Below, one piece after another: positions 35,517 through 51,535 of a stretch of 64,000 bases of DNA; the first letter of the stretch is position 1, and each line of letters starts with the position of its first letter. Source of the stretch: Turritopsis dohrnii (taxonomy: Eukaryota > Cnidaria > Hydrozoa > Anthoathecata > Oceaniidae); NCBI GenBank assembly GCA_027922465.2, contig BQMF02000033.1, positions 186,001 to 250,000 of the forward strand, in the 5' to 3' direction. Made by a program: the position numbers and the translations under genes. Under the pieces are notes generated by a model that was given only the letters and a program-made list of their open reading frames with translations, made no database searches and was not told where the DNA came from.

Positions 35517-35619
35517 AGTAGTAGGCGAGAGTAATTTCACCCACACCCTCGATGTTCATAATTTTATCGAGAATTTACTATATTTTTAACGGTGAAAATA
35601 AGGGGGGATTTCCCCATGA
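35517..35619. repeat. Polinton left terminal inverted repeat, 103 bp
   Basis: Begins AGTAGTAGGCGAGAG, as Polinton ends typically start with AG. Identical over 103 bp to the reverse complement of 50,481-50,583. Near its inner end is GGGGATTTCCCC (35,604-35,615). Confidence 0.95.
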
Positions 35620-35831
35620 GATCTTTGTTTTCATAACGCGATACGAGTTATGAAACGTGTTATTTTGATTACATAACATAACAAAATTCTCAAATAACAG
35701 TTTCTATTATTATAACCACAAATTACTCATAAATGTAAACAATTAAATATCTCATAAAAATGTAGTAAAAAGCAGTTTGTAGAAGTTTCATTTTTATAGC
35801 ATAAATAAGCTAACAATACATATGACATACA

Positions 35832-36248
35832 GGTCAGCGTAGTCTAGTGGATAAGAACGATAACTTGTAACAACAAGGTCGTGTGTTCGAACCCCACTCG
35901 GTCTCTCATGTCCTGGTTGAAAAACTTGCATGAGTGCGCACTTCCCCGCAGTTGCGTTGGATATATCGCGGTTTGGGTAGACTTCGGTCTGGGTGATTAA
36001 TCACTGTCAGGTTTCACTGGTCCACAGAGACATTCAGGTTACCGTCAAATCGATCGAAATTCAACATAAACGTCAGGGCTTGAAGGTGTTAGCATGAACC
36101 TAAACTACTATGACATGTGGCTGTCGGGATATAAACGTCAGGGCTTGAAGGTGTTAGCATGAACCTAAACTACTATCACATGTGGCTGTCGGTACAAAAA
36201 CCTAAGGGTTCTCTAAAATAGAGTTTTGTTTTCAATAATAATAATAAT
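35832..36248 (+). repeat. tRNA-derived SINE inside the Polinton left arm
   Basis: The head has RNA polymerase III boxes: A box TAGTCTAGTGG at 35,840-35,850 and B box GTTCGAACCC at 35,885-35,894, in a tRNA-like order. The acceptor stem does not pair, so it is not a tRNA gene. A body follows with a 65-bp direct duplication (36,066-36,130 and 36,131-36,193), then an (AAT)n tail at about 36,228-36,248. This tail resembles that of the LINE at 17.8 kb, a possible source of its mobilising enzyme. It reaches the stop region of the next gene. Confidence 0.7.
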
Positions 36249-37380
36249 ACCATATACTAAACATCGTGGTAATCGCTAAAACCAAAGCTATTTTCTCTTC
36301 TTCGTGAGATGGGAGTGAATCTGTTTGACTCACTACTCTTTTGTGAACTTTTATTTTTGTTTGTGTTGGAGAGCTAGTCACTTTGGGTGAAATATGATGC
36401 TCTTGCATAACATTAATCATTTTATTTCTTCCGAGGATCAAGTTGACATTAGATATGAGAATTTTATTATTATAACCAGACACTCCCGACTTGATGTTTA
36501 GATTCATGTCACTAGGTAACATGTAAATACCTTGTCCAACAGAATAATCAACTTTACTTGAAGCGTAATTTAAAGTGTCCTGATAACGTTTAATGTCATC
36601 TTGAATATCAACTCTGCGATTAACAATGTCTTCAAAGTTGTTCATAAAAACTCTTTGAGCTGTCAAAGAGCTTGAATTATTACCTAAAATAGAAGAACGA
36701 GCTGAGGCTTGCGAACTAAGAACAAGATAAGCATATGCTCTAACACTCTCTGAAATTTTTACAAGACCTGTTTTTGTAAAGCCTTTAGATTTTTCTATAA
36801 TCCATCGTGTCATGGAGTCGTCTGTGAAATAACTCACACCTGGCGTTGGATAGTCTCTACGTCTTTTTTGATACGAGCTGTAAAAATATTGCCCTTTGTA
36901 TTTTTTAGGATCAGAATCGACACCATATTCACTACAGATTTTTAAAAACTCTTCTTTGTTATAAGGATTATCGTATTGGTTGAAACTATCTTCAAAAGGT
37001 AGGGGTGTCTGAAGACGCTTAATGATTCGTCTAATATGATAATAGACGTGAAAACGATACACTGCTCTAATCATAGGAGTAGAGCGACTTTCTTTCAGAT
37101 GTTCAGAACTGACTCCACAAGCGCTTGAAGCACACCAAGTGACAAAGTTGATTTGTGTTTGCCATAATTTAAACGGTTGTTTCTGCCAAATTTTCATACG
37201 TTGATCATTTTCATCCATTTCGTAATTAGTAAATATATTTGGAAAAGTTGCGGGGAAAGAACCGCTCTCAGAGACGATAATTGTTTGTTTGTATAAATCT
37301 TTAGCATTCAAAATCTGAAGGTCTTGTCCTCCATTTGGCTTATAAGCCGCATTGGGATTATATTTAAAAATATCCTCCAT
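36232..37380 (-). CDS. Polinton hypothetical protein, 382 aa, C-terminal membrane segment
   Basis: Start is ATG at 37,380. I recognise no enzymatic domain. The N-terminal half contains the conserved-looking stretch LWQTQINFVTWCASSACGVS, and I believe similar proteins accompany Polintons in cnidarian genomes. The middle is rich in Tyr and Arg. The C-terminus is a hydrophobic segment (IALVLAITTMFSIW) and probably a membrane anchor. The last five residues are all Tyr, encoded by the (AAT)n tail of the SINE on the opposite strand, so the original C-terminus may have been altered. It is divergent from the penton gene, sharing a 39-bp promoter gap. A structural or host-interaction role is possible but not shown. 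Confidence 0.8.
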   Translation of the reverse strand: MEDIFKYNPNAAYKPNGGQDLQILNAKDLYKQTIIVSESGSFPATFPNIFTNYEMDENDQRMKIWQKQPFKLWQTQINFVTWCASSACGVSSEHLKESRSTPMIRAVYRFHVYYHIRRIIKRLQTPLPFEDSFNQYDNPYNKEEFLKICSEYGVDSDPKKYKGQYFYSSYQKRRRDYPTPGVSYFTDDSMTRWIIEKSKGFTKTGLVKISESVRAYAYLVLSSQASARSSILGNNSSSLTAQRVFMNNFEDIVNRRVDIQDDIKRYQDTLNYASSKVDYSVGQGIYMLPSDMNLNIKSGVSGYNNKILISNVNLILGRNKMINVMQEHHISPKVTSSPTQTKIKVHKRVVSQTDSLPSHEEEKIALVLAITTMFSIWYYYYY

Positions 37381-38023: not shown

Positions 38024-39340
38024 ATGGAGTATGGAAAGAGGTTAAATCCAGAACGTTCACTTAGAACTGCCCGCGGTGTAAAAGGCTCTCGTCAAAAAGT
38101 AATTGTCACACACAATCCGAGTGAGATCGATCAAAATCAGCTATTATTGGTTAGATTTCCAAATTTAGGAAGTGATGATGTTATTATCCCAGGAACAACG
38201 AATCTAAGTTTTGATATTGAACTCGAGTCGAAAGCTGACTCAAAAAGAACATTGGTCAGTAACATTGGGAGAGCTATCGTTAAGAAGTTGGCTGTCAAGT
38301 TCGAAGGTAACGAGATATTGAGTATCGATGACTTTGATCTTTTTGGGTGTTACAGAGATTTATGGTTAACCAAGTTTGAAAAGAGAAACGCGATAAGACA
38401 AGGTATCATCATCGACGATGGGTGTACAGAGAATTGTATGAAATTAAGGATTGGTGCTTCTGATAAAAAGGACGATGATGCGGAAGACAAAGCCATTGCT
38501 GACACCTATAAAAACAAGTTTGTCATTCCACTCGACTTTGAGATGCTAGATAGTACTATTCCATATTATCAAGCAGGTTTAGGTAATAGGTTATGCTACG
38601 AGATCACATTTAACGACTATAACCGAGTTATTTATTCTGACCCTCCAGATACTGCCGCAGGTCAAAAACGTAACCCAGATGGTAAATACAAAATATCTAA
38701 CATCTCACTTGAATATGAGCTTGTGACACAACCCACGTTGGCTAGACAAATCGCTTCTGAATACGAAAACATGGCTTTGCTCTATGATAGGGTTTTGAGG
38801 CACAGACAAATTAGAGTAAACAAGTCAGACACAACATGGAATTGGTCATTCAACACACCTGCCAAATCTTTGAAGGGTATCTTAGTTCTATTTGAAGAAG
38901 AAAAATCCTACAAACGAGAAACCTGTAAATTCTACAATCCAAAGATCAAAAAGGTATCTGTCATCGTCGAGGGCAAGCCTAACCAACTTTTTGCTCAAGG
39001 GATGCAGCCGTTTGAACAATACAATGAGATTTGCAAGTATTTTGCTGAAGGAAAACCAAAAGATAATAGCGTCGGCGAAAACCGAAAGCGCTTGGGATTA
39101 CATGATGTAAAAGTCTCTGATTACTTAACAAACAAGTATGCTCTATGGTTAGATTTCAGAACAATTGATGAGAATGCCTTGCATGGGACCGGTCGAAAGA
39201 TTGAAAATGCGAGTGAAGGCATCACTTTACAGATTGAAAAGACCGCTGAAACTGCAGGAAACTTAAACGCATATATATATCTAATAATGGATGCTCAATT
39301 AAACATACAAAACGGTCAATTTATGTCTACATTATATTAG
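38024..39340 (+). CDS. major capsid protein (double-jelly-roll type)
   Basis: 438 residues from ATG at 38,024. The pattern RFPNLGSDDVIIPGTTNLSF near the start, KFVIPLDFEMLDSTIPYYQ and LCYEITFNDYNRVIY in the middle, and a beta-rich C-terminal half matches Polinton major capsid proteins. Those are homologous to the double-jelly-roll capsid proteins of adenovirus and nucleocytoplasmic viruses. Trimers would form the icosahedral shell. Only four bases separate its stop from the ATPase start, suggesting coupled expression. The frame is intact and of usual length. Confidence 0.88.
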   Translation: MEYGKRLNPERSLRTARGVKGSRQKVIVTHNPSEIDQNQLLLVRFPNLGSDDVIIPGTTNLSFDIELESKADSKRTLVSNIGRAIVKKLAVKFEGNEILSIDDFDLFGCYRDLWLTKFEKRNAIRQGIIIDDGCTENCMKLRIGASDKKDDDAEDKAIADTYKNKFVIPLDFEMLDSTIPYYQAGLGNRLCYEITFNDYNRVIYSDPPDTAAGQKRNPDGKYKISNISLEYELVTQPTLARQIASEYENMALLYDRVLRHRQIRVNKSDTTWNWSFNTPAKSLKGILVLFEEEKSYKRETCKFYNPKIKKVSVIVEGKPNQLFAQGMQPFEQYNEICKYFAEGKPKDNSVGENRKRLGLHDVKVSDYLTNKYALWLDFRTIDENALHGTGRKIENASEGITLQIEKTAETAGNLNAYIYLIMDAQLNIQNGQFMSTLY

Positions 39341-39963: not shown

Positions 39964-39988
39964 TTTGTTACATGACTCTTGTAACAAA
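39964..39988. terminator. stem-loop TTTGTTAC/GTAACAAA after the ATPase
   Basis: Perfect 8-bp stem with a nine-base loop, 13 nt after the ATPase stop and before the convergent GADD34-like gene. Confidence 0.55.
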
Positions 39989-39992
39989 AAAT

Positions 39993-40076
39993 ATAAGACT
40001 CCTATAAGACTACTGTAAGACTACTGTAAGACTACTGTAAGACTATTGTAAGACTGTTATAAGACTACTGTAAGAG
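39993..40076. repeat. 11-bp tandem repeat TAAGACTACTG, about 8 copies
   Basis: Imperfect copies between the convergent ATPase and GADD34-like genes. The array overlaps the 3' end of the latter. Confidence 0.85.
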
Positions 40077-40291
40077 ATTAATTTACGTCTCAATACAGGT
40101 TCTAGAATTTTACCAATATGTTTAATCCTCGATTCAAAGCGTACTCTGTCAACAGCAGCCTCTATCCAGTTACTTCTACGAGATTCACAAGCATAGATAT
40201 AATGGACCATTACTTTATCATTAAAAGTAACCTTTTTTGTATCTTGATGGGAAAATATAATATCATCATCTGAGGATTCATCATCGAACAT
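40043..40291 (-). CDS. PPP1R15/GADD34-like small protein (predicted PP1 recruiter)
   Basis: 82 residues from ATG at 40,291. An acidic start (residues 3-11) is followed by KVTF at 20-23, which fits the RVxF consensus for protein phosphatase 1 docking. Then come VMVH at 27-30, W42, and DRVRFESRI at 48-56. This order (K-V-x-F, V-x-V-H, W, D-R-x-R-F-x-x-R-I) is that of the functional core of PPP1R15 proteins, which hold PP1 on eIF2-alpha and reverse stress-induced translation arrest. Large DNA viruses are known to carry such homologues. The last nine residues are encoded by an 11-bp tandem repeat, so the C-terminus is probably variable. Function is inferred from motif order only. Confidence 0.6.
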   Translation of the reverse strand: MFDDESSDDDIIFSHQDTKKVTFNDKVMVHYIYACESRRSNWIEAAVDRVRFESRIKHIGKILEPVLRRKLISYSSLITVLQ

Positions 40292-40383
40292 AATTGTTTA
40301 AGTAAACAATGTTTATTTATTTAACAATGTTAGAATATATTATTAAACATCATCATCCTCTTATAATTATTTTGTCTTACATA

Positions 40384-40620
40384 ATTATAAGAGGACAGCA
40401 AACTCTTATACAACACATTTCAACAAACTTATAAGAAGATAGCAAACTCTTATACAACAAATTTCAACAAAATTATAAGAGGACAGCAAACTCTTATACA
40501 ACAAATTTCAACAAAATTATAAGAGGACAGCAAACTCTTATACAACAAATTTCAACAAAATTATAAGAGGACAGCAAACTCTTATACAACAAATTTCAAC
40601 AAAATTATAAGAGAGTATAA
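40384..40620. repeat. 44-bp palindromic repeat array, five units
   Basis: Units begin at 40,385, 40,429, 40,473, 40,517 and 40,561 (exact 44-bp period), with a partial sixth at 40,605. Each contains TATAAGAG, nine bases, CTCTTATA, an 8-bp inverted repeat (the second unit is mutated). The array lies between divergent genes (40,291 minus and 40,645 plus). It could act as a bidirectional regulatory region, a replication or packaging signal, or a series of binding sites. Confidence 0.9.
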
Positions 40621-40644: not shown

Positions 40645-41289
40645 ATGATAGAATATGTCAACTTCATGTTATTAAGCATACTGCTGATCTCGCTATTTTA
40701 CTTTTATTTTGTGTTAAAAAAATACCTCTCTCTAATAAAAATGGTGGAAACAGCGATCGATAATTTAATCAACCAGAGTTATGATGTTCCGGGTGAATTT
40801 CCACCTTCAGATGGTAAAAGACAAAAATTACTCGAGTGTGTCTTAACCGGTAATAGCAAGCTATACTTAGGGAAAATGTACACGGAAGAGCAAATTAACA
40901 AACTCAAAGATGAAGAGGTAGAAAAACTTTTTAGTATCTACGAGGCTAAACTATCAGGTCAAATGGTAAAATCCTTGGGGAAATCACTGATACGTATTTA
41001 TTCCATGGGGGCTTGTGCAACATTAGGAATAAACAATCAAGAAGCGCTAAGCAATGACCTGGAAACTGACCCCTTCTTAAACTCTGCCCTTCAAAGATTT
41101 ACGTGTGACTTATATTATAAATTCGGCTCATTATTAGCACCACTCAGTGTTGGACTTATTACCGGGAGGCATTATATCAATGAAAGGAATTTAAATAAAT
41201 CCGATGATAATATAAATACAGCAGATAATAAAAATGTCAGAAGAACAGACTCCCATTCAAGTGACAACGAAGAACCCAAAAAAGGTTGA
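40645..41289 (+). CDS. Polinton membrane-anchored protein, 214 aa
   Basis: ATG at 40,645, chosen because the TATAACAAAC box precedes it by 8 nt. Residues 5-24 form an N-terminal membrane segment (FMLLSILLISLFYFYFVLKK). A charged helical region follows (EEQINKLKDEEVEKLFSIYE), then a conserved-looking part with SLIRIYSMGACATLGINNQE and LITGRHYINERN, and a polar tail. I do not recognise the family beyond its association with Polintons. The next gene overlaps its end by 56 nt in another frame. It begins a block of four small membrane-protein genes, which could be virion membrane or assembly factors. Confidence 0.75.
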   Translation: MIEYVNFMLLSILLISLFYFYFVLKKYLSLIKMVETAIDNLINQSYDVPGEFPPSDGKRQKLLECVLTGNSKLYLGKMYTEEQINKLKDEEVEKLFSIYEAKLSGQMVKSLGKSLIRIYSMGACATLGINNQEALSNDLETDPFLNSALQRFTCDLYYKFGSLLAPLSVGLITGRHYINERNLNKSDDNINTADNKNVRRTDSHSSDNEEPKKG

Positions 41290-42259: not shown

Positions 42260-42287
42260 AATGTATATTCAATTTGAGTACAAAAAT

Positions 42288-42312
42288 TATGTTACACGAT
42301 ACGTGTAACATA
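42288..42312. terminator. stem-loop TATGTTACACG/CGTGTAACATA between convergent genes
   Basis: Perfect 11-bp stem with a three-base loop, 28 nt after the stop of the 140-aa gene and 17 nt from the end of the convergent 423-aa gene. Confidence 0.65.
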
Positions 42313-42329
42313 TATACACACTCAGATGG

Positions 42330-43601
42330 TTATCGTCTAGTGACAAGGTATGTATAGATCAACCCTACAATCAGAGCCCATAAATTTTGACTTAACCAAC
42401 CTACAACTTCCTTAGCTCTAGTGAGTATCCACGATACGATAGATCCAATTATTCCTGGTAAAGCCTCTGCCGCTTTAGATGCTAATCTACCTAGAAGTGA
42501 TGCTAACGCTTTTAGTTTATTTTTTATCCATTCCTTTGCATCGTCCTTTTTATCACCACCTTTGTCAGTATTTTGCGAAGAGTTTCCAGCTGCTGATGGT
42601 AACAAAGCTTCCACAAGGACACCGATAGCCATACCAAACGCTGTCAGAATGCTAACGATTGTTATACCTTGTTCACGGAATAGTGTTCGTATCCTTTCAC
42701 CTAATGTGGTATCTTTGTCGAGGACTTTAGCAATGGTTTCTTTGATGCTCGTTACTTGACTGTTTAATTTACCTTTGAGAATATCAATGTTCTCTTTCCT
42801 AGCTTTCAACTCTTCATGTAATCCCTCCACTCTCTCTTCAACCTCTTTTCGTTGTTCATCTGTGTATGTCGCATCGTTTTCCATCTCTTCCAACTTGTTT
42901 TTCTCTCGATCGATATGCTGTTCTATTCGAACCTTTTTCGCAACCTCTTCCTGAAGACCTCCTCGTATGTTTCTCAACGCCTTATCCAATCCTAACAACT
43001 CTCGCACAGGATATTCAAATAGATCACCGGTCTGAGTCATTTCATGATCGACCGATTGTTGTCTTATTAATGAAATTAGATCTTCCGTACTATTTGCAAT
43101 GTTCCCCGTAATCTCCTCAAGCTCTACATCACTCGATTTTGTGATTTTAGATGTCGAGGGAAGCTCTTCTTGTATTTTGTTAAGTGCAACTGCTTGTCGT
43201 GCTGTTATTTTACCCTTAGGTATATCAAACCCTAATTTACGTAACCCCTCCTTACGCAATATATCAGCTATAGTACCGGTAGCCCTTAGTCTTCCATTGT
43301 TTGTCAATGGTTTGCTACTGTCTTTGTAGTATAATTCACCATCTCTGATTTCAAACAGATCGGTATATAACACCTCAGGTTTTTGTTGCAATCGTTCAGA
43401 TAATCTTTTGTATATATCACCGACAAAACTTTTCAAAAGTTTAATTTTTTGATCTCCACCACCAAATGAGGTTTCACCCGTCGCTCCGCGTGTATCTATT
43501 TGTTCACCACCCGAAGTTGGTATGAGAGGAAACGTCTCATCGGTTGTTTCATCTGTCGTCATACCATGTTCTCCAAAAGGATCTATGTCAATGTCTGCCA
43601 T
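42330..43601 (-). CDS. Polinton coiled-coil protein with C-terminal membrane segments, 423 aa
   Basis: ATG at 43,601. A Thr/Glu-rich N-terminus precedes a conserved-looking block (LFEIRDGELYYKDSSKPLTN, GFDIPKGKITARQAVALNKI). A long coiled coil follows at about 190-290, then a hydrophobic region (ITIVSILTAFGMAIGVLVEA) and a C-terminal amphipathic/membrane part (IIGSIVSWILTRAKEVVGWL, NLWALIVGLIYTYLV). The layout resembles the PC1-type coiled-coil proteins of Polintons, though I cannot confirm orthology. It is divergent from the next gene with a 59-bp gap, and convergent with the previous one across the 42,288-42,312 hairpin. Confidence 0.7.
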   Translation of the reverse strand: MADIDIDPFGEHGMTTDETTDETFPLIPTSGGEQIDTRGATGETSFGGGDQKIKLLKSFVGDIYKRLSERLQQKPEVLYTDLFEIRDGELYYKDSSKPLTNNGRLRATGTIADILRKEGLRKLGFDIPKGKITARQAVALNKIQEELPSTSKITKSSDVELEEITGNIANSTEDLISLIRQQSVDHEMTQTGDLFEYPVRELLGLDKALRNIRGGLQEEVAKKVRIEQHIDREKNKLEEMENDATYTDEQRKEVEERVEGLHEELKARKENIDILKGKLNSQVTSIKETIAKVLDKDTTLGERIRTLFREQGITIVSILTAFGMAIGVLVEALLPSAAGNSSQNTDKGGDKKDDAKEWIKNKLKALASLLGRLASKAAEALPGIIGSIVSWILTRAKEVVGWLSQNLWALIVGLIYTYLVTRR

Positions 43602-43660: not shown

Positions 43661-44257
43661 ATGAATTTTAAAATTTATCCAAAACTACCCACTGCTCCTC
43701 AGGATTTGAATGAGCAGGAAAAGTTTAACGCAAGCGTAATAAATTCTGAGTTTGAAGAGTTGATAAAACTTAAGAACAAGTTTAGTATCAAGCTCAAGAG
43801 ATACAACAAGGCGATAGAACGATCGATGCTACTAAATGCTAGCTCAAGCGCTATAACCATCGGCTCTGGCATCGGTTCAATTGCAACAGGGGCTACTATT
43901 ATCGGAATGCCTATTTCTGCAGGATTAGGTGGTGTAGCCCTAGCCGGCTCTATCTGTACCGGACTTACCACAGCTGTCATCAAAAGATATCAAAAGAAAG
44001 TAGAAAAAGTGATAAAATTATATGATATTGTTACATCCTCAATTTCTGTCTTCGAAACAAGTATCTCACAGGCGCTGACTGATGGAAGGATCAATTACAA
44101 AGAATTCCAGGTTTTGCAGGGAACATATTACAAAGCTTTAGAAGGACTCAGTTCTACAGATAGAAAGATGGAGACTGAAACTCAAAATCAATTTCAAAAA
44201 AGTTTGATGGTAGAACTCCAAAACTTGAAAAAGTCAATAAACGAAAATGGTTACTAG
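43661..44257 (+). CDS. Polinton coiled-coil protein with glycine-rich hydrophobic hairpin, 198 aa
   Basis: ATG at 43,661. Charged helices (residues 15-58) lead to a Gly/Ser/Ala-rich hydrophobic stretch of about 45 residues (AITIGSGIGSIATGATIIG, then GLGGVALAGSICTGLTTAVI). Further helices follow, rich in Lys and Glu (KRYQKKVEKVIKLYDIVTSS). A glycine-rich hydrophobic hairpin between coiled coils is seen in some membrane-inserting proteins, so membrane insertion during entry or exit is conceivable. No function is established. I believe the family is common in cnidarian Polintons. Confidence 0.7.
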   Translation: MNFKIYPKLPTAPQDLNEQEKFNASVINSEFEELIKLKNKFSIKLKRYNKAIERSMLLNASSSAITIGSGIGSIATGATIIGMPISAGLGGVALAGSICTGLTTAVIKRYQKKVEKVIKLYDIVTSSISVFETSISQALTDGRINYKEFQVLQGTYYKALEGLSSTDRKMETETQNQFQKSLMVELQNLKKSINENGY

Positions 44258-44350: not shown

Positions 44351-44671
44351 ATGGAATTTCCAACAGTTGATACATTCGAACAGACAATCAACAAGCAAAA
44401 CAAGGAACAAATGGCAGAGATCATAAAGTGGCGAGAGCTACCTGAAAACGTGATTTATCATGTTAAATTTTTTTCTACAAAAGCTATGTATGCAGAGTTG
44501 AAAGATGGAGCAGGAAATATATATAAGGTGTGGTTGCCTGAAAGACTTTTCATTGAATTAAATGATTATGGTTGGAGCTCTAGAGAGGCCTTTGTCAGAC
44601 CGAAAGGTCTCAAACAATCTCAAAAGAATTCAGAAAGACAATTCTTTGATTATGACGTTATATGGCGCTAG
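44351..44671 (+). CDS. Polinton small soluble protein, 106 aa
   Basis: ATG at 44,351, 4 nt after a TATATATAGAC run. Mixed beta-rich sequence: VIYHVKFFSTKAMYAELKD, NIYKVWLPERLFIEL, AFVRPKGLKQSQ and a C-terminal FFDYDVIW. The alternating pattern and basic loop could suit a small nucleic-acid-binding (OB-like) fold, but that is a guess from pattern. Polinton relatives exist in my memory; function unknown. It converges on the integrase across a 9-bp-stem hairpin. Confidence 0.6.
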   Translation: MEFPTVDTFEQTINKQNKEQMAEIIKWRELPENVIYHVKFFSTKAMYAELKDGAGNIYKVWLPERLFIELNDYGWSSREAFVRPKGLKQSQKNSERQFFDYDVIWR

Positions 44672-44689
44672 ATAAAATCTCGTCGACTC

Positions 44690-44714
44690 ATCTTTACTTG
44701 TTTCTAGTAAAGAT
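44690..44714. terminator. stem-loop ATCTTTACT/AGTAAAGAT between the 106-aa gene and the integrase
   Basis: Perfect 9-bp stem with a seven-base loop, midway in the 66-bp convergent gap. Confidence 0.6.
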
Positions 44715-44737
44715 ACTTTTTGTATGAGATGTATGAT

Positions 44738-45721
44738 TCACCAACCTTGCACATAATCAGGAGGTAGCTCTGTATCTTCAGGTATTAATATCAGCTCTTC
44801 TTTCACAAAAGCTCGTTCAGGTCCATCTTGAAGGTAATACATTACACGGTTACCAGGTTGCTCTATTACCTCACTCAATCTATATGTCTTCTTTGACCAT
44901 ATCCTATCTGTTGCTCTTTTTCGATGATCGTTGTGCTCTTCACCCGGTTGCAATAGATATCTATACAAACCATCTTGAGGTAGCTCTACTTCAGGTGGAT
45001 AGCTCTCTTGTTTAGCGAGAGGTACCTCTTTCATTTTAATAGCATCTTTTGGTTTCATACCGATCATCCGAGTCTTCGTATCGTTTAATCTATCCACAAG
45101 TTTATACAAATATTTGACCCACGTAGATGATACCTTTTCCGAATCGTTCAGTTCTTGAGCATCTTGTATTTTGAATAAATTTTCGGCAAGTATCTTGTTC
45201 AACGCCTCGACAAACGCTGTATGGGTATGCTTATATTTAGTAGTTACTCTTTTAATTTCAACGTTATTCTTCTCCAACAGCTTTGTCACATCGGCTTTGA
45301 ATTCTGAACCGTTATCGCATTGAAATACTTTTGGATAGTTTAAGGGTCCAACCTTGTAGATGTCTTCAATCATAGCGGCAACCTCTTTGGCTTTCTTAGT
45401 CTTCAAAGGTCGGGCTACTTTGTAACGTGAAGCAACATCGATAGCGGATAAGATGTACTTGTATTTATTACCATATAGCATATCACTAGGCATATATAAT
45501 ATATCAAATTGATGAATCTCATTCGGTTTAGTTACCTCATAATGTGAACGTTCAACATGTTTCGGTGCTGGTAAATGTACTTGCCACAAAGCTTGTTTTG
45601 ATAGCCACTTCTTAATTACCTTCGGTTTGAAGTCGAATCCTCTTAGATTGCGAACAGCCTTTTGTCCTTTCCATAAGTTTTGAGGTTGATAATAAATCTC
45701 TTGAAGTTTAATGTCAGACAT
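44738..45721 (-). CDS. integrase (retroviral type, DD35E)
   Basis: 327 residues from ATG at 45,721; the longer frame upstream lacks ATG. It inserts the element's DNA ends into the host genome. The catalytic triad is D73 (IHQFDILYM), D136 (FQCDNGSEF) and E172 (AFVEALNK), giving the canonical D-35-E spacing. The N-terminal 60 residues are basic with no clear HHCC finger. The C-terminal 100 residues are beta-rich (YRLSEVIEQPGNRVMYYLQD). No obvious chromodomain. Position next to PolB and orientation are usual for Polintons. The frame is intact. Confidence 0.92.
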   Translation of the reverse strand: MSDIKLQEIYYQPQNLWKGQKAVRNLRGFDFKPKVIKKWLSKQALWQVHLPAPKHVERSHYEVTKPNEIHQFDILYMPSDMLYGNKYKYILSAIDVASRYKVARPLKTKKAKEVAAMIEDIYKVGPLNYPKVFQCDNGSEFKADVTKLLEKNNVEIKRVTTKYKHTHTAFVEALNKILAENLFKIQDAQELNDSEKVSSTWVKYLYKLVDRLNDTKTRMIGMKPKDAIKMKEVPLAKQESYPPEVELPQDGLYRYLLQPGEEHNDHRKRATDRIWSKKTYRLSEVIEQPGNRVMYYLQDGPERAFVKEELILIPEDTELPPDYVQGW

Positions 45722-46299: not shown

Positions 46300-49200
46300 A
46301 TGACTACTAAAAATACTGTTGTTGAATTAAAAGCTCTTGCTAGAGAACGCGGTTTACATGGCTACTCAAAACTCAGAAAAGCTGAGTTGATCGAATTATT
46401 AGCAAACCCACCTATCCAACCTGTTCCACTACCAAGACCTACTAGGTTTAACCGACCTGTTCCACCACCAAGACCTGTTCCATTTATTCCCACCCAACAA
46501 GATATGGATATCTTTGAACAGCGAGAAATGTCGAAAAATAGACCTCAGGTGAAAAGTAAGTTGGATGAATGGAGAGATTGGTTGGTAAATCATGTACCTA
46601 AACCTATTAAGGAGAAAACTAGTAAAGCTTTCAAAACTTTGAAAGATAAGGTTCTCAATCTGTATAAAAAGGTTAGAAAAGAGAGAGATGAGGATGATGA
46701 TGTTGTTCGAGAATTAGATCAACGACCACAAATCAACTTGATTGAAAGCCATCCAAGAATGAACAGGTATGAGGTTACCGGTATTTTGAATTCAGACCTA
46801 TCAAATATGATTTTCAACCGAATCAGAGAAGATATTGAAATGCGTTCGAGGATTGTTTACAGTTTTACCGCTAAAATTTATCGGGGAAATGGGGAACTTG
46901 TAAAGTATGAAAAAACGCTTCCTGGAGAAGGTACTTATACAAGTTTATCCGCAATCGAGGAGTATATCAAACGATGTGAGAGTCGAAGGTTAGATTTGGA
47001 CGATGATGGTGTTTGGTCTAAGGCGTATCTACCAGCGGCCGAGGTTTTCGATAGTCCGGGTGTCTATCAGGGACGTGTCGAATTTACTAGAATTATCATA
47101 AAAGTCATACACAGTAATGAACCGCTCATGGGTTGTGGTCCTCTCCCTGATTGGCTTCGTAAGAAGAAATGTATTCACGCTATTGATGATAAAAAGGACA
47201 ATCTGTGTGTATGGAGATGTCTTGCTATCTACTTTGGATATTGTGATAATGTGGCAAGACCTGCTGAACGTACTACTACCAAAGCGTTACAACTAGCTCG
47301 AGATTTTTATGATGATCAGAACCTAGAAGTTGAGGATGTACGAGCTACAAAACTCGTTGATTTTGAAGGTATTGCCAAAAAGTTTAATGTCAATATCCGT
47401 CTATATGAATCGAAAAACCAACAGGTTTGGAAATTGGTGTTTGGTAAAAACCAGTTCAGAAAAAGTTTACCTTGTGTTGATATCGGTCTCTACGAGGGTC
47501 ATTGCTTCTACATAAAAGATCTTGATGGTTTGACACAACACTGGGAATGTGTCGGTTGCGAACAGAGATTTAACAGACACGACAATTATAATAGACACGT
47601 AACAGAAAATCTTTGTTCGGGAGGGAAAACCAAGTTGATATGCAAAGGAGAAAAGTTTAAGCATATCATGAACAGTTCCGATAAGGTATTCTATGGAGGT
47701 AACACCCAGTTCAGTTATGCCGGTTGTCGATGGATTGAAAAACAATCTGAAATCACAGGCAAACATATTCATCACGCTCTTTGCGGTCATGGGGGTGAGA
47801 GATGTGTGAAGATTAATAATCGCGAGATTCTTGTGGATGGATATGAACCTGAAAGTAATACTGTCTATCAATATTATGGTTGTAGATGGCATGGATGTCC
47901 TTGTATAAATGGCGATCCGAAAAAATATCGAGCTACACTCGACATGGAGACAAAAATTAGGAGTCTTGGTTGTGATGTTATTTCAGTTTGGGGGTGTGAA
48001 AAACCGGAGTTGAGTACCGTTGAGCTTGAAAAGAAGTTTGTTCCATACCCATACTTTATCGTGTTTGATTTCGAAACGATACTCCATAAACTCGACCAAC
48101 AAGTTACGAGTGATCTGACTTTTGATACTAAACATATCGCAGTCAGCGTTGCTATTACCGATAACTTTACAAATAAACCCACCTTTCTTGTAAATTCGGA
48201 TCCGGAAAAGCTCATCAAAGACTTTATTTTAGATTTAGAAAAACGGTGGGTGGACATCTCGAAATGTGTAAGTGAAGAATATTATTTGCCCGACAAAGAT
48301 TCGCTTCCATCCTCCGTAGTTATGCGACAGGAAGCTTGGTGTAATCAGGTTCCTGTGCTAGGTTTCAATAGCGGTAAATACGATCTCAATATGATCAAGA
48401 AGCACTTTGTTAATCATATGACAGAACAGGCCGGTTCAATCTCTGTGGCTAAGAAAGAGAATAGCTATATGTTTTTGACGACCGGTCAGTTCAAATTTTT
48501 AGATGTGAAATCTTATCTTGCACCGGGTCTTTCTTTTGATGGTTGGTGTAAAGCAAACAATTGTGAAGAACAAAAACTCGTCTTTCCTTATGAATGGCTG
48601 GATAGTTTTGAGAAACTTTCTCACATAGGCACTGTTAAATATGAAGATTTTTACTCGAGTCTCAAGAAAAAGATTTTAATCACTACTCAAGAATATGAAG
48701 ATTTTAAGGTTGAATTTGAGAAACGTGGGTGTGTTACGATGTTGGGTTGGTTAAAAGAATATAACTTGGCTGATGTTGTACCGTTTGTTGAAGCTTTGGA
48801 GAAGACGCGAGAATATTATTATGGAGACGATATCGATATGTTGAAGGATGCTGTATCTATTCCTGGAATTTCGATGACTTATGTTTTGAACAAAGCGTTG
48901 AAAATGAAAAAGAAAGGAGAGCCCGATTTGTATGCACCCGGACAACCTTGTACGTGTAAATGTTCGAAGGAATGTTATAAACAAGGTTGCAAAGACTGTT
49001 CAAAAATACGGAAAGATTGTGAGGCGTGTCCGAAAAACAAAGCTTACGAGTTGTTGAAAACCGGTATGGTTGGTGGTCCGAGTATTGTGTTTTCCAGATA
49101 TGCCGAAAGAGGTGTGTCAAAGATACGACCTCATAAATATAAAGACGCTAGGGATTGTGAGTCTGTTGTTGGTTTTGATGCGAATAGTTTGTACTTGTTT

Positions 49201-50430
49201 TGTTCGGGACAGGAGATGCCCTGTGGAAAGGAGAGTTACATTGAGATCGAAAATCCTACAGATCCGGAGTTTTTGAAAGAGTTTTCCGAGGGTGTATGTG
49301 ACGGTTCTATTTTTGGTTTTTGTCAGGTAGATATTCATGTTCCGGAAGAGTTAAAAGCTAAATTTGAAGAGTTTTCACCTCTGTTTGTTGTCGATAAAAT
49401 TCCTGAGAGATTAGTACCTCAACATATGAAGGATTATCAAACAGCTACAAATAGGATGAATATCAAAGGAACTAAAAAGTTATTGGGGGTTTGTAAGGCG
49501 AAGAAGATTTTGTTATATACACCGTTGTTGAAGTGGTATATAGATCACGGTTTGAAGGTGACTGGCGTATATAAAATTCTGAAATATACAGCGAGCAGGC
49601 CTTTCAAATGGTTCCCTAAAGAAGTAACCGATGCGAGACGAGATGGCGATTCGAACCCTGCATTAAAACAACTCGGTGACACTCATAAACTGAAAGGTAA
49701 TTCGTTCTACGGTAAAATGATTGAAGATCTCGAAAAACATACCAATAATACGTACACAAAATCAGAGGAAAATGTCGATAAGGCGTTCAGAAGCCCTTTC
49801 TTTGACGATCTTGAAGTTATTAATGAGACGTTTGAGATCAAAGAGAGAAAACGTCAAGTCAATATAAATCGACCTTATCAATGCGGTATCGCCGTGTACC
49901 AATTTGCTAAATTGAGGATGCTTGAGTTTTACTACGATTTTCTCGATAAATATATTGACAGGAGGGATTTTGAATTGATTCAAATGGATACGGATAGTAT
50001 GTACATGGCTCTTTCGTCTAAGTCGTTGGATGATATCGTTAAACCCGAACTTAAGGATTATTATTTCAAGCAAGGTAAAGCAGAATTTTTGAGTACGAGT
50101 AAATACCACGATAGAACACCGGGTTTATTCAAGGCGGAGTTCAATGGTACTCGAATGATTGCGCTCACGAGTAAATGTTATTTTGCGGAAAATCAAGATC
50201 TGGGTAAATCAAAGTTTAGTTGTAAGGGAATTTCAAAAAGGCAAAATGAAATGAGTTGGCAGCGATACAAAGAAGCTTTGGATGGTAGTAAGGACATGGC
50301 ACAAAATACAGGGTTTAGGGTAAGTAATCATAAGATCGTCACGTACACACAAAAGAAACTAGGTCTAAGCGCTTATTATGACAAACGAATCGTAGCCGAT
50401 GATGGGATACACACCAAACCTCTATACTAA
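46300..50430 (+). CDS. protein-primed family B DNA polymerase with N-terminal extensions
   Basis: 1376 residues from ATG at 46,300; replicates the element. In order: SAP-like motif (residues 3-30); proline-rich linker (44-64); OTU-like segment with KDNLCVWRCLA near 300 and GHCFYIKD near 400; C2H2-like finger (CVGCEQRFNRHDNYNRH, 417-435); nuclease-like block VDGYEPESNTVYQYYGCRWH near 511-530. The exonuclease motifs are FDFETI near 588 and FNSGKYDLNM near 688. A cysteine cluster lies near 885-910. The polymerase motifs are A FDANSLYL near 958, B KLKGNSFYGK near 1130, C DTDS near 1229, and TSKCYF near 1290. It is longer than typical because of the N-terminal domains. Motifs are intact. A 7-bp stem-loop follows. 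Confidence 0.95.
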   Translation: MTTKNTVVELKALARERGLHGYSKLRKAELIELLANPPIQPVPLPRPTRFNRPVPPPRPVPFIPTQQDMDIFEQREMSKNRPQVKSKLDEWRDWLVNHVPKPIKEKTSKAFKTLKDKVLNLYKKVRKERDEDDDVVRELDQRPQINLIESHPRMNRYEVTGILNSDLSNMIFNRIREDIEMRSRIVYSFTAKIYRGNGELVKYEKTLPGEGTYTSLSAIEEYIKRCESRRLDLDDDGVWSKAYLPAAEVFDSPGVYQGRVEFTRIIIKVIHSNEPLMGCGPLPDWLRKKKCIHAIDDKKDNLCVWRCLAIYFGYCDNVARPAERTTTKALQLARDFYDDQNLEVEDVRATKLVDFEGIAKKFNVNIRLYESKNQQVWKLVFGKNQFRKSLPCVDIGLYEGHCFYIKDLDGLTQHWECVGCEQRFNRHDNYNRHVTENLCSGGKTKLICKGEKFKHIMNSSDKVFYGGNTQFSYAGCRWIEKQSEITGKHIHHALCGHGGERCVKINNREILVDGYEPESNTVYQYYGCRWHGCPCINGDPKKYRATLDMETKIRSLGCDVISVWGCEKPELSTVELEKKFVPYPYFIVFDFETILHKLDQQVTSDLTFDTKHIAVSVAITDNFTNKPTFLVNSDPEKLIKDFILDLEKRWVDISKCVSEEYYLPDKDSLPSSVVMRQEAWCNQVPVLGFNSGKYDLNMIKKHFVNHMTEQAGSISVAKKENSYMFLTTGQFKFLDVKSYLAPGLSFDGWCKANNCEEQKLVFPYEWLDSFEKLSHIGTVKYEDFYSSLKKKILITTQEYEDFKVEFEKRGCVTMLGWLKEYNLADVVPFVEALEKTREYYYGDDIDMLKDAVSIPGISMTYVLNKALKMKKKGEPDLYAPGQPCTCKCSKECYKQGCKDCSKIRKDCEACPKNKAYELLKTGMVGGPSIVFSRYAERGVSKIRPHKYKDARDCESVVGFDANSLYLFCSGQEMPCGKESYIEIENPTDPEFLKEFSEGVCDGSIFGFCQVDIHVPEELKAKFEEFSPLFVVDKIPERLVPQHMKDYQTATNRMNIKGTKKLLGVCKAKKILLYTPLLKWYIDHGLKVTGVYKILKYTASRPFKWFPKEVTDARRDGDSNPALKQLGDTHKLKGNSFYGKMIEDLEKHTNNTYTKSEENVDKAFRSPFFDDLEVINETFEIKERKRQVNINRPYQCGIAVYQFAKLRMLEFYYDFLDKYIDRRDFELIQMDTDSMYMALSSKSLDDIVKPELKDYYFKQGKAEFLSTSKYHDRTPGLFKAEFNGTRMIALTSKCYFAENQDLGKSKFSCKGISKRQNEMSWQRYKEALDGSKDMAQNTGFRVSNHKIVTYTQKKLGLSAYYDKRIVADDGIHTKPLY

Positions 50431-50453: not shown

Positions 50454-50478
50454 TTATTAATGCGTTTCACGTTAATAA
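50454..50478. terminator. stem-loop TTATTAA/TTAATAA after PolB
   Basis: 7-bp stem with an 11-base loop between the PolB stop and the right terminal repeat. The weakest of the set because it is AT-only. Confidence 0.35.
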
Positions 50479-50480
50479 TG

Positions 50481-50583
50481 TCATGGGGAAATCCCCCCTT
50501 ATTTTCACCGTTAAAAATATAGTAAATTCTCGATAAAATTATGAACATCGAGGGTGTGGGTGAAATTACTCTCGCCTACTACT
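50481..50583. repeat. Polinton right terminal inverted repeat, 103 bp
   Basis: Exact reverse complement of 35,517-35,619. It ends at 50,583, and the satellite begins within about 10 bases. Confidence 0.95.
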
Positions 50584-50589
50584 TTGCCA

Positions 50590-51535
50590 GAATTGAAATC
50601 AGCACCTTTCAAATGTAATCCATGCAAAATTTCATGAAATTTGAAGAACTTTCGAAATTTGGTCCAAATTTGGCCCAAATTGTCCAATTTTAGTCAAATC
50701 TGACAAAATGACTGTCAAATTTGAAATCAGCACCTTTCAATTGTAATCCATGCAAAATTTCATGAAATTTGAAGAACTTTTGATATTTGGTCCAAATTTG
50801 GCCCAAATTGTCCAATTTTAGTCAAATCTGACAAAATGACTGTCAAATTTGAAATCAGCACCTTTCAATTGTAATCCATGCAAAATTTCATGAAATTTGA
50901 AGAACTTTTGTATTTGGTCCAAATTTGGCCCAAATTGTCCAATTTTAGTCAAATCTGACAAAATGACTGTCAAATTTGAAATCAGCACCTTTCAATTGTA
51001 ATCCATGCAAAATTTCATGAAATTTGAAGAACTTTTGATATTTGGTCCAAATTTGGCCCAAATTGTCCAATTTTAGTCAGATCTGACAAAATGACTGTCA
51101 AATTTGAAATCAGCACCTTTCAATTGCAATCCATGCAAAATTTCATGAAATTTGAAGAACTTTTGATATTTGGTCCAAATTTGTCCCAAATTGTCCAATT
51201 TTAGTCAGATCTGACACAAAATGACTGTCAAATTTGAAATCAGCACCTTTCAATTGTAATCCATGCAAAATTTCATGAAATTTGAAGAACTTTTGATATT
51301 TGGTCCAAATTTGGCCCAAATTGTCCAATTTTAGTCAAATCTGACAAAATGATCGTCAAATTTGAAATCAGCACCTTTCAATTGTAATCCATGCAAAATT
51401 TCATGAAATTTGAAGAACTTTCGAAATTTGGTCCAAATTTGGCCCAAATTGTCCAATTTTAGTCAAGTCTGACAAAATGATCGTCAAATTTGAAATCAGC
51501 ACCTTGTCTAAATTGGCCCAATTTTAGTCAAACAT
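50590..51535. repeat. satellite, 128-bp period, seven full units plus a partial
   Basis: Unit starts (GAAATCAGCACCTTTCAA) fall at 50,595, 50,723, 50,851, 50,978, 51,106, 51,236, 51,364 and 51,492. The spacing is 127-130 bp, mostly 128. Units are highly similar. Each is rich in AAATTTG/CAAATTT words. Confidence 0.95.

What the first reader, a model, noticed from the sequence alone, without database searches (positions are those of the whole stretch)
40043..40291. GADD34/PPP1R15-like PP1-docking gene inside a Polinton
The 82-residue product has KVTF (RVxF PP1-docking consensus), VMVH four residues later, a Trp, and DRVRFESRI. This is the same order and similar spacing as the PPP1R15 core that brings PP1 to eIF2-alpha. 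Some large DNA viruses carry such homologues to keep translation running during stress. A copy on a Polinton would mean these elements meet eIF2-alpha kinase defence, which argues for a real viral phase. I know of no description of this in Polintons. A short motif match can be convergent, so this needs testing.
Basis: partly seen in the sequence, partly recalled or inferred. Interest (0 to 1): 0.88.

Follow-up and report, generated by a model that had tools for sequence, protein, structure and literature searches.

The report
Stress-phosphatase gene carried by a Polinton
A virus-like jumping gene (Polinton), found at hundreds of places in an unnamed, probably animal, genome, carries a small gene resembling the cell's own PPP1R15 (GADD34) stress-reversal gene, which suggests that these elements can switch protein synthesis back on when the host tries to shut it down.

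Summary
The 82-aa minus-strand ORF (40043-40291) passes the Pfam PPP1R15 core model (PF10488) above its cut-off. In the PDB it best matches human PPP1R15B, then viral DP71L. It carries the functional order: RVxF, phi-phi (VH), Arg, Trp, the published eIF2alpha-binding motif (one deviation in this copy) and the two leucines critical in DP71L. It lies in a 15-kb Polinton with 106-nt terminal repeats, between ATPase and a 214-aa gene.

The own genome (436 Mb) shows at least 257 such places; the 150 best-scored are all open. Across 94 copies, none of 11 contact residues varies. A second Polinton form carries a related, more host-like gene at a different site (3 of 3 places read), with the ATPase slot empty in the one copy checked. 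A candidate host PPP1R15 gene shares the GK(V/I)LEPVL tail, and one Polinton copy keeps a five-residue stretch that the window type has lost.

Most likely it recruits PP1 to dephosphorylate eIF2alpha during element expression. No biochemistry was possible. pN/pS shows no purifying selection, some copies lack the gene, and the C-terminal actin contact is not recognisable.

The parts
35517..35622 (+). left terminal inverted repeat of the Polinton (106 nt)
   Evidence: 99% complementary to 50478-50583 (105 of 106 identical)
50478..50583 (-). right terminal inverted repeat
   Evidence: candidate 6-nt duplication TTGCCA adjoins it on the right, but on the left it lies about 17 nt away from the repeat (read by eye)
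36232..37380 (-). 382-aa ORF in the place where the penton/minor capsid gene is recalled to lie (name by position only)
   Evidence: ORF; no Pfam match
38024..39340 (+). candidate double jelly-roll major capsid protein, 438 aa
   Evidence: Capsid_N weak in 11 of 12 aligned relatives, best E 0.0016, in this copy 0.076; 3473 relatives among 7780 candidates in the protein collection; 96 scored copies in own genome
39345..39950 (+). A32-type packaging ATPase, 201 aa
   Evidence: Pox_A32 E 1.7e-7; PHROG terminase 8.2e-12
39965..39987 (.). hairpin TTGTTACA...TGTAACAA between the convergent ATPase and PPP1R15-like genes
   Evidence: read by eye; similar hairpins lie between the two other convergent pairs of the element
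39994..40075 (.). 11-nt minisatellite that runs into the 3' end of the gene; explains the variable C-terminus
40043..40291 (-). PPP1R15/GADD34-like gene, 82 aa
   Evidence: PF10488 above cut-off; human PPP1R15B and DP71L in PDB; 150 of 150 scored genomic copies (446 candidates) without stops
40379..40613 (.). 44-nt tandem repeats between the divergent PPP1R15-like and 214-aa genes
40645..41289 (+). 214-aa ORF with N-terminal hydrophobic stretch, neighbour of the slot
   Evidence: found in 25 of 27 capsid-centred copies read
44738..45721 (-). rve integrase, 327 aa
   Evidence: rve E 7.6e-12
46300..50430 (+). type B DNA polymerase candidate, 1376 aa
   Evidence: polymerase-like motifs DANSLYL, KLKGNSFYG and DTDS read directly, motif names recalled; no Pfam polymerase match and no relevant PDB match

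Best explanation
The gene is a Polinton-borne PPP1R15 core. Shown: the sequence homology, the element, the copy number, and a second Polinton form with its own PPP1R15-like gene. Inferred: residues 20-42 wrap PP1 (RVxF, phi-phi VH, Arg38, Trp42), the helix from about residue 42 on offers F52/R55 to G-actin and D48/R51 to eIF2alpha, and the complex removes the phosphate of eIF2alpha Ser51. This would keep translation going when a host eIF2alpha kinase reacts to Polinton replication or transcription. The gene was probably captured from a PPP1R15 gene of the host clade and shortened within the element.
For: PF10488 above cut-off and, own genome, in 150 of 150 scored places of 413 candidates, against 0 of 14 control genomes. 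PDB matches. Literature roles (passages of PMC8500838, PMC4394352, PMC10743859) map to V21, F23, V29-H30, I32, R38, W42, D48, R51, F52, R55, I56. In 94 copies none of 11 tested same-residue sites (these without V29) varies, against 23 of 42 other residues (P 7e-4). DP71L's critical leucines of LSAVL align with L63 and L67 (alignment), each kept in 92 of 95 copies. AlphaFold2 gives a disordered N-half and helices 41-47 and 49-81, the layout of the PPP1R15 core. A second Polinton form has a PPP1R15-like gene, a 147-codon ORF at C819, at another site. A candidate host gene has RRIENVGKVLEPVLK near its end, and copy C105, in the window's slot, keeps a MIAWDYAYRKSRRSNW stretch like the host's.
Against: No expression, binding or enzyme data. 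Two of the four published eIF2alpha contacts are not kept (human R587 is V47, R594 is S54), and with these included the site test weakens to 2 of 13, P 0.019; V29 of the phi-phi pair is Ile in 1 of 94 copies. The C-terminal actin contact (R612 region) falls in a minisatellite-derived tail that varies or is cut short in copies. pN/pS is 1.34 (bootstrap 0.34-11; 23 copies) against 0.19 (23) and 0.19 (15) for the two neighbours. At least one otherwise continuous copy lacks the gene (L071). Some relatives fall below the Pfam cut-off: C105 15.3 bits, P0131 17.4, P0132 13.6. AlphaFold confidence is low (pLDDT 66, six sequences). The residue list was chosen after the alignment was seen, and the 94 copies include sets picked for closeness to the query or for unusual scores.
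Confidence: 0.72

Rival explanations
1. The protein binds PP1 but does not direct it to eIF2alpha; it sequesters PP1 or brings it to another target such as a viral or chromatin protein.
For: RVxF, Arg and Trp are kept, while two eIF2alpha contacts and the C-terminal actin contact are changed. A DP71L deletion of residues 52-66 still bound PP1 and raised phospho-eIF2alpha, which the authors suggest may be sequestration (passage of PMC5346070).
Against: Residues after Trp42 (A46, D48, R51, F52, R55, I56) lie outside the PP1-wrapping part as described in PMC4394352, yet do not vary in 94 copies, and the published eIF2alpha motif is matched with one deviation or none.
Confidence: 0.17
2. A captured PPP1R15 fragment that rides along without function in a young burst of copies.
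For: pN/pS near or above 1 and low silent diversity (0.016) suggest a recent origin and no demonstrable purifying selection; some copies lack it.
Against: Open in 150 of 150 scored places and found as an ORF from Met in 72 of 77 loci by a script test (missing: L005, L066, L071, L055 cut by a contig start, L056), while some of the same copies have broken neighbouring genes. Changes avoid contact residues. Two Polinton forms each have such a gene at different sites.
Confidence: 0.1
3. Chance or convergent RVxF-type motif unrelated to PPP1R15.
For: The RVxF motif is found in most PP1 regulators (passage in PMC10743859).
Against: Curated profile match over 47 residues, recovery of PPP1R15B-like exons by a profile that, however, contained human R15B, and the shared GK(I/V)LEPVL tail with a candidate host gene.
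Confidence: 0.01

Closest known systems
PPP1R15A/GADD34 and PPP1R15B/CReP (animal eIF2alpha phosphatase subunits, PF10488)
   Same: RVxF, phi-phi (VH as in GADD34), Arg, Trp, D/R/F/R/I residues after it, order and spacing; 17 of 48 core residues equal human R15B
   Different: Only the core, no long N-terminal part; acidic DESSDDD lead; R587 and R594 positions changed; C-terminal actin contact not recognisable
Candidate host PPP1R15 (own genome C11:727457-727615, 345-codon open frame)
   Same: KRVxF, W, DR, RRIENVGKVLEPVLK tail; 20 of 48 core residues
   Different: Long N-terminal part; HF instead of RF; no Pfam match at E 1; five extra residues before Trp, as in Polinton copy C105
ASFV DP71L and HSV ICP34.5 (viral PPP1R15 homologues)
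   Same: Viral version of the core; DP71L short form has 70-72 residues (PMC5346070) and its LSAVL region aligns with LEPVL
   Different: Those are on large DNA viruses of vertebrates; this is on an integrating Polinton at hundreds of genomic places. ICP34.5 was not compared here
Polinton/Maverick elements and adintoviruses
   Same: TIRs, integrase, type B polymerase candidate, A32 ATPase, capsid candidate
   Different: No PPP1R15-type gene found described: 0 papers hold both polinton and PPP1R15; GADD34, PPP1R15, phosphatase and eIF2 do not occur in the adintovirus preprint PMC11071296

Membership tests
PPP1R15 family (PF10488 PP1c_bdg) | score above the curated profile cut-off | tested here: met
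   28.7 against 26.1 bits; 150 of 150 scored genomic places above it; but copy C105 scores 15.3
PPP1R15 family (PF10488 PP1c_bdg) | RVxF, phi-phi, Arg and Trp in register for PP1 | tested here: met
   V21 F23, V29 H30, R38, W42 in register with human R15B; roles from passages
PPP1R15 family (PF10488 PP1c_bdg) | eIF2alpha-binding motif Rx[Gnl]x1-2Wxxx[Arlv]x[Dn][Rg]xRFxx[Rlvk][Ivc] | tested here: inconclusive
   window copy has Ser at [Gnl]; 14 of 94 copies match fully, 94 of 94 if Ser is allowed
PPP1R15 family (PF10488 PP1c_bdg) | C-terminal actin contact (human R612 region) | tested here: not met
   tail is minisatellite-derived and variable. This is a feature of the cellular members; PMC5346070 states that DP71L lacks a RARA-like sequence
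PPP1R15 family (PF10488 PP1c_bdg) | binds PP1 and promotes eIF2alpha dephosphorylation | not testable with these tools
   needs biochemistry; complexes could not be predicted here
Polinton/Maverick | terminal inverted repeats | tested here: met
   106 nt, 99%
Polinton/Maverick | rve integrase | tested here: met
   E 7.6e-12
Polinton/Maverick | A32-type packaging ATPase | tested here: met
   E 1.7e-7
[quoted passage not shown]
   motifs read by eye; no Pfam polymerase match
Polinton/Maverick | double jelly-roll capsid protein | tested here: inconclusive
   Capsid_N weak in 11 of 12 relatives; AlphaFold model unusable, pLDDT 40; PDB profile search without a capsid
Polinton/Maverick | 6-nt target duplication (recalled) | tested here: inconclusive
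   TTGCCA on both sides but about 17 nt off the left repeat

The most novel reading that the evidence does not exclude
Polintons of this genome have taken up a host PPP1R15 gene and use it as an antagonist of the integrated stress response. They kept it at two different sites in two element forms, and one form has pared it from a host-like core to a minimal version. That would be direct evidence that these 'transposons' meet an eIF2alpha-kinase defence.
Probability: 0.55. Interest if true: 0.9.

Novelty: new variant of a known kind. Interest (0 to 1): 0.8.

Why it matters
Whether animal Polintons are transposons or viruses is an open question. A high-copy gene that imitates the host's own switch for ending translational shut-off is hard to explain unless element activity triggers that shut-off, so it makes a viral, or at least highly expressed, phase testable. 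It also adds an integrating element to the viruses known to have taken up PPP1R15, and gives a natural series (candidate host gene, long Polinton form, intermediate, minimal form) for learning what the phosphatase core really needs.

Tried and rejected
Rejected: chance RVxF match. Rejected: that the gene spread between strongly diverged elements, first suggested by low protein identities of neighbours in L023, L031, L038; these proved to be broken frames at 94-98% DNA identity. Not claimed: positive selection; pN/pS above 1 has a bootstrap interval of 0.34-11. The copies were chosen for unusual scores or frames, so the MCP-centred set is the one quoted for pN/pS; for the neighbours in it, copies with gaps or stops were left out.

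Led nowhere: single-protein search of the collection with the window protein; viral-contig scans with the gene, capsid, polymerase, alignments and a DNA pattern (no relative); capsid model and capsid PDB profile search; Rfam and ARAGORN for the SINE-like stretch; paper searches that ranked unrelated papers. PF10488, human R15B and a vertebrate-like R15B exon as queries did not bring up the candidate host gene among the 150 rows listed each; only P0131 did. The third regular expression was mis-specified and is not used.

Full report
What is there. It sits in an element bounded by 106-nt terminal inverted repeats at 35517-35622 and 50478-50583 that carries a capsid candidate, an A32-type ATPase, an rve integrase and a long type B polymerase candidate. 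Polymerase and capsid rest on motifs and weak profile matches. The gene lies between the convergent ATPase gene and the divergent 214-aa gene; a hairpin and an 11-nt minisatellite separate it from the ATPase, and 44-nt repeats from the 214-aa gene.

What the protein is. It passes PF10488 above the curated cut-off (28.7 against 26.1 bits). Its best PDB relatives are human PPP1R15B and DP71L. A human R15B core scores the chains of its own paralogue R15A at 24.6 and 22 bits and DP71L at 25.5, so 27.5 bits for the window protein is within the family range. By register with R15B the docking residues V21, F23, V29-H30, R38 and W42 are in place. Their roles come from passages of PMC8500838, PMC4394352 and PMC10743859. 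After Trp42, the actin contacts F52 and R55 and the eIF2alpha contacts D48 and R51 are kept; R587 and R594 of human R15A are V47 and S54. The eIF2alpha motif quoted in PMC5346070 (abstract and passages, Discussion in full) is matched by 14 of 94 copies as printed, and by 94 of 94, the window copy among them, if Ser is allowed at one place. The two leucines of DP71L's LSAVL reported as critical align with L63 and L67. AlphaFold2 on six sequences gives a disordered first half and helices 41-47 and 49-81 at pLDDT 66; the layout fits, but confidence is low.

How common it is. The window is part of a 436-Mb genome in 891 contigs, organism not named. The capsid query found 96 scored places of 1110 candidates, 95 of 96 without stops. 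The gene itself: 150 scored of 446 candidates, all 150 without stops. Joined with the PF10488 search (150 scored of 413 candidates, 150 of 150 above cut-off), the two lists give 257 distinct places on 213 contigs. The scored lists hold the best candidates only, so intactness is biased upwards. Of the 96 capsid places, 42 have a listed gene within 2.5 kb. Of the 54 others, 26 were read and 23 have it; one more read copy, L006, belongs to the 42 (so 24 of 27). The three without: L005 and L066 run from the gene's 3' end into inverted left-end sequence, and L071 lacks the gene between hairpin and repeats. 28 of the 54 were not read in full; one of these, C819, was read in part and has an empty slot. 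One copy (L077) ends at codon 70.

Constraint. In 94 copies (46 DNA haplotypes, 40 proteins, residues 14-66; the L001 duplicate, one chance match and L076 with an indel dropped), 23 of 53 residues vary. None of 11 contact residues that were tested does (P 7e-4); with the two replaced contacts included, 2 of 13 vary (P 0.019). V29, the first residue of the phi-phi pair, was not in that list and is Ile in one copy. Against constraint, pN/pS in 23 capsid-centred copies is 1.34 (0.34-11), while ATPase (23 copies) and the 214-aa gene (15 copies) show 0.19 and 0.19; silent diversity is 0.016 against 0.147 and 0.069. The other sets gave 1.11, 3.40 and 1.13 for the gene, all with intervals that include 1. 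So ordinary purifying selection is not shown. The low silent diversity fits a recent spread of the gene, but constraint on silent sites or sampling are not excluded.

A second Polinton form and a host gene. The last protein search, with a profile of copies plus human R15B, gave 13 hits. Ten look like vertebrate PPP1R15B exons, one is the human PDB chain, and two (P0131, P0132) are small stand-alone proteins with 50% and 48% identity over 60% of the window protein, from unnamed contigs of 1405 and 3071 bases. P0131 as query in the own genome ranked two new kinds of place above the window-type copies, apart from C105 at the top. First, 12 places of a related gene, each with one TAA within the stretch aligned to P0131. 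At C819 it is a 147-codon ORF that passes PF10488 (28.1 bits). In 3 of 3 places read (C819, C811, C125) it lies between sequence matching the 106-aa/integrase end and sequence matching the element's left end and penton-like gene; the other nine were not read. At C819 the ATPase/214-aa slot downstream is empty. In C811 and C125 the stretch upstream of the core is out of frame with it. Second, C11: a 345-codon open frame ending in a PPP1R15-like core, with an acidic stretch before it, a candidate host gene. Pfam does not recognise it, and in the 2 kb read its only tblastx match in the window is the PPP1R15-like gene itself. C105 is a window-slot copy (flanked by ATPase and the 214-aa gene) that keeps a five-residue stretch before Trp, as the candidate host gene and P0131 do. 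The simplest order is host-like core, then long Polinton form and C105 type, then the window type by a small deletion. Direction and number of captures are inference, since no tree was built.

Mechanism. Best-supported: a minimal PPP1R15 that brings PP1, probably with G-actin, to phospho-eIF2alpha, so that capsid and polymerase mRNAs keep being translated when a host eIF2alpha kinase responds. Docking residues and the eIF2alpha-facing helix are read from sequence and a low-confidence model; binding, catalysis, the kinase and the time of action are inferred. The changed C-terminus leaves PP1 sequestration or another substrate open.

Literature. No paper in the held library has both 'polinton' and 'PPP1R15'. 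The terms GADD34, PPP1R15, phosphatase and eIF2 do not occur in the main text of PMC11071296. A search for PPP1R15/GADD34-like and PP1c_bdg gave 12 papers, none about Polintons by title (listing only). Most subscription papers are not in that library, and supplements were not searched.

Noticed in passing
L066 (C751:12790-16390) and L005 (C119:922588-926901): Two Polinton copies break off in the 3' end of the PPP1R15-like gene; L066 was read by eye to continue into the element's own left-end sequence in inverted orientation. The two are 94.5% alike over 1122 nt across the junction. They look like a snap-back deletion derivative that has itself multiplied, as might be expected of protein-primed linear genomes.
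   Followed up: partly
C819:69300-74700, C125:291200-295900, C811:32400-36700: A rearranged Polinton form in which the integrase/106-aa end adjoins the left-end/penton-like end, with a PPP1R15-like gene between them and no full window-type terminal repeat in the pieces read.
   Followed up: partly
L076 (C776:68125-71725), L086 (C333:9920-10340), L100 (C105:960500-961600): Copies of the gene with the acidic DESSDDDIIFS(H/Y)Q block present two or three times at the N-terminus.
   Followed up: no
window 39965-39987 and the intergenic gaps near 42260-42330, 44671-44738: All three convergent gene pairs of the element have, by eye, a hairpin between their stop codons; divergent pairs share AT-rich motifs such as TAATTAATAAT and TTTATTTATTTA near the starts.
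   Followed up: no
window 35835-36210: Stretch that by eye looks like a tRNA-derived SINE with a 65-nt tandem duplication inside the element's left end; ARAGORN and Rfam found nothing.
   Followed up: partly
own genome, capsid search: 1110 first-look candidates for the capsid protein; 95 of the 96 scored copies open and 97-100% identical, which suggests a young and large Polinton burst; many copies lie near contig ends.
   Followed up: no
window 50593-51505: 128-nt satellite (7 copies) begins about 10 nt outside the right terminal repeat.
   Followed up: no
window 43661-44257: 198-aa element protein with a hydrophobic glycine-rich centre; weak Pfam matches DUF4461 (1.9e-5, just above cut-off) and RTX N-terminal domain (8.9e-4, below cut-off).
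   Followed up: no
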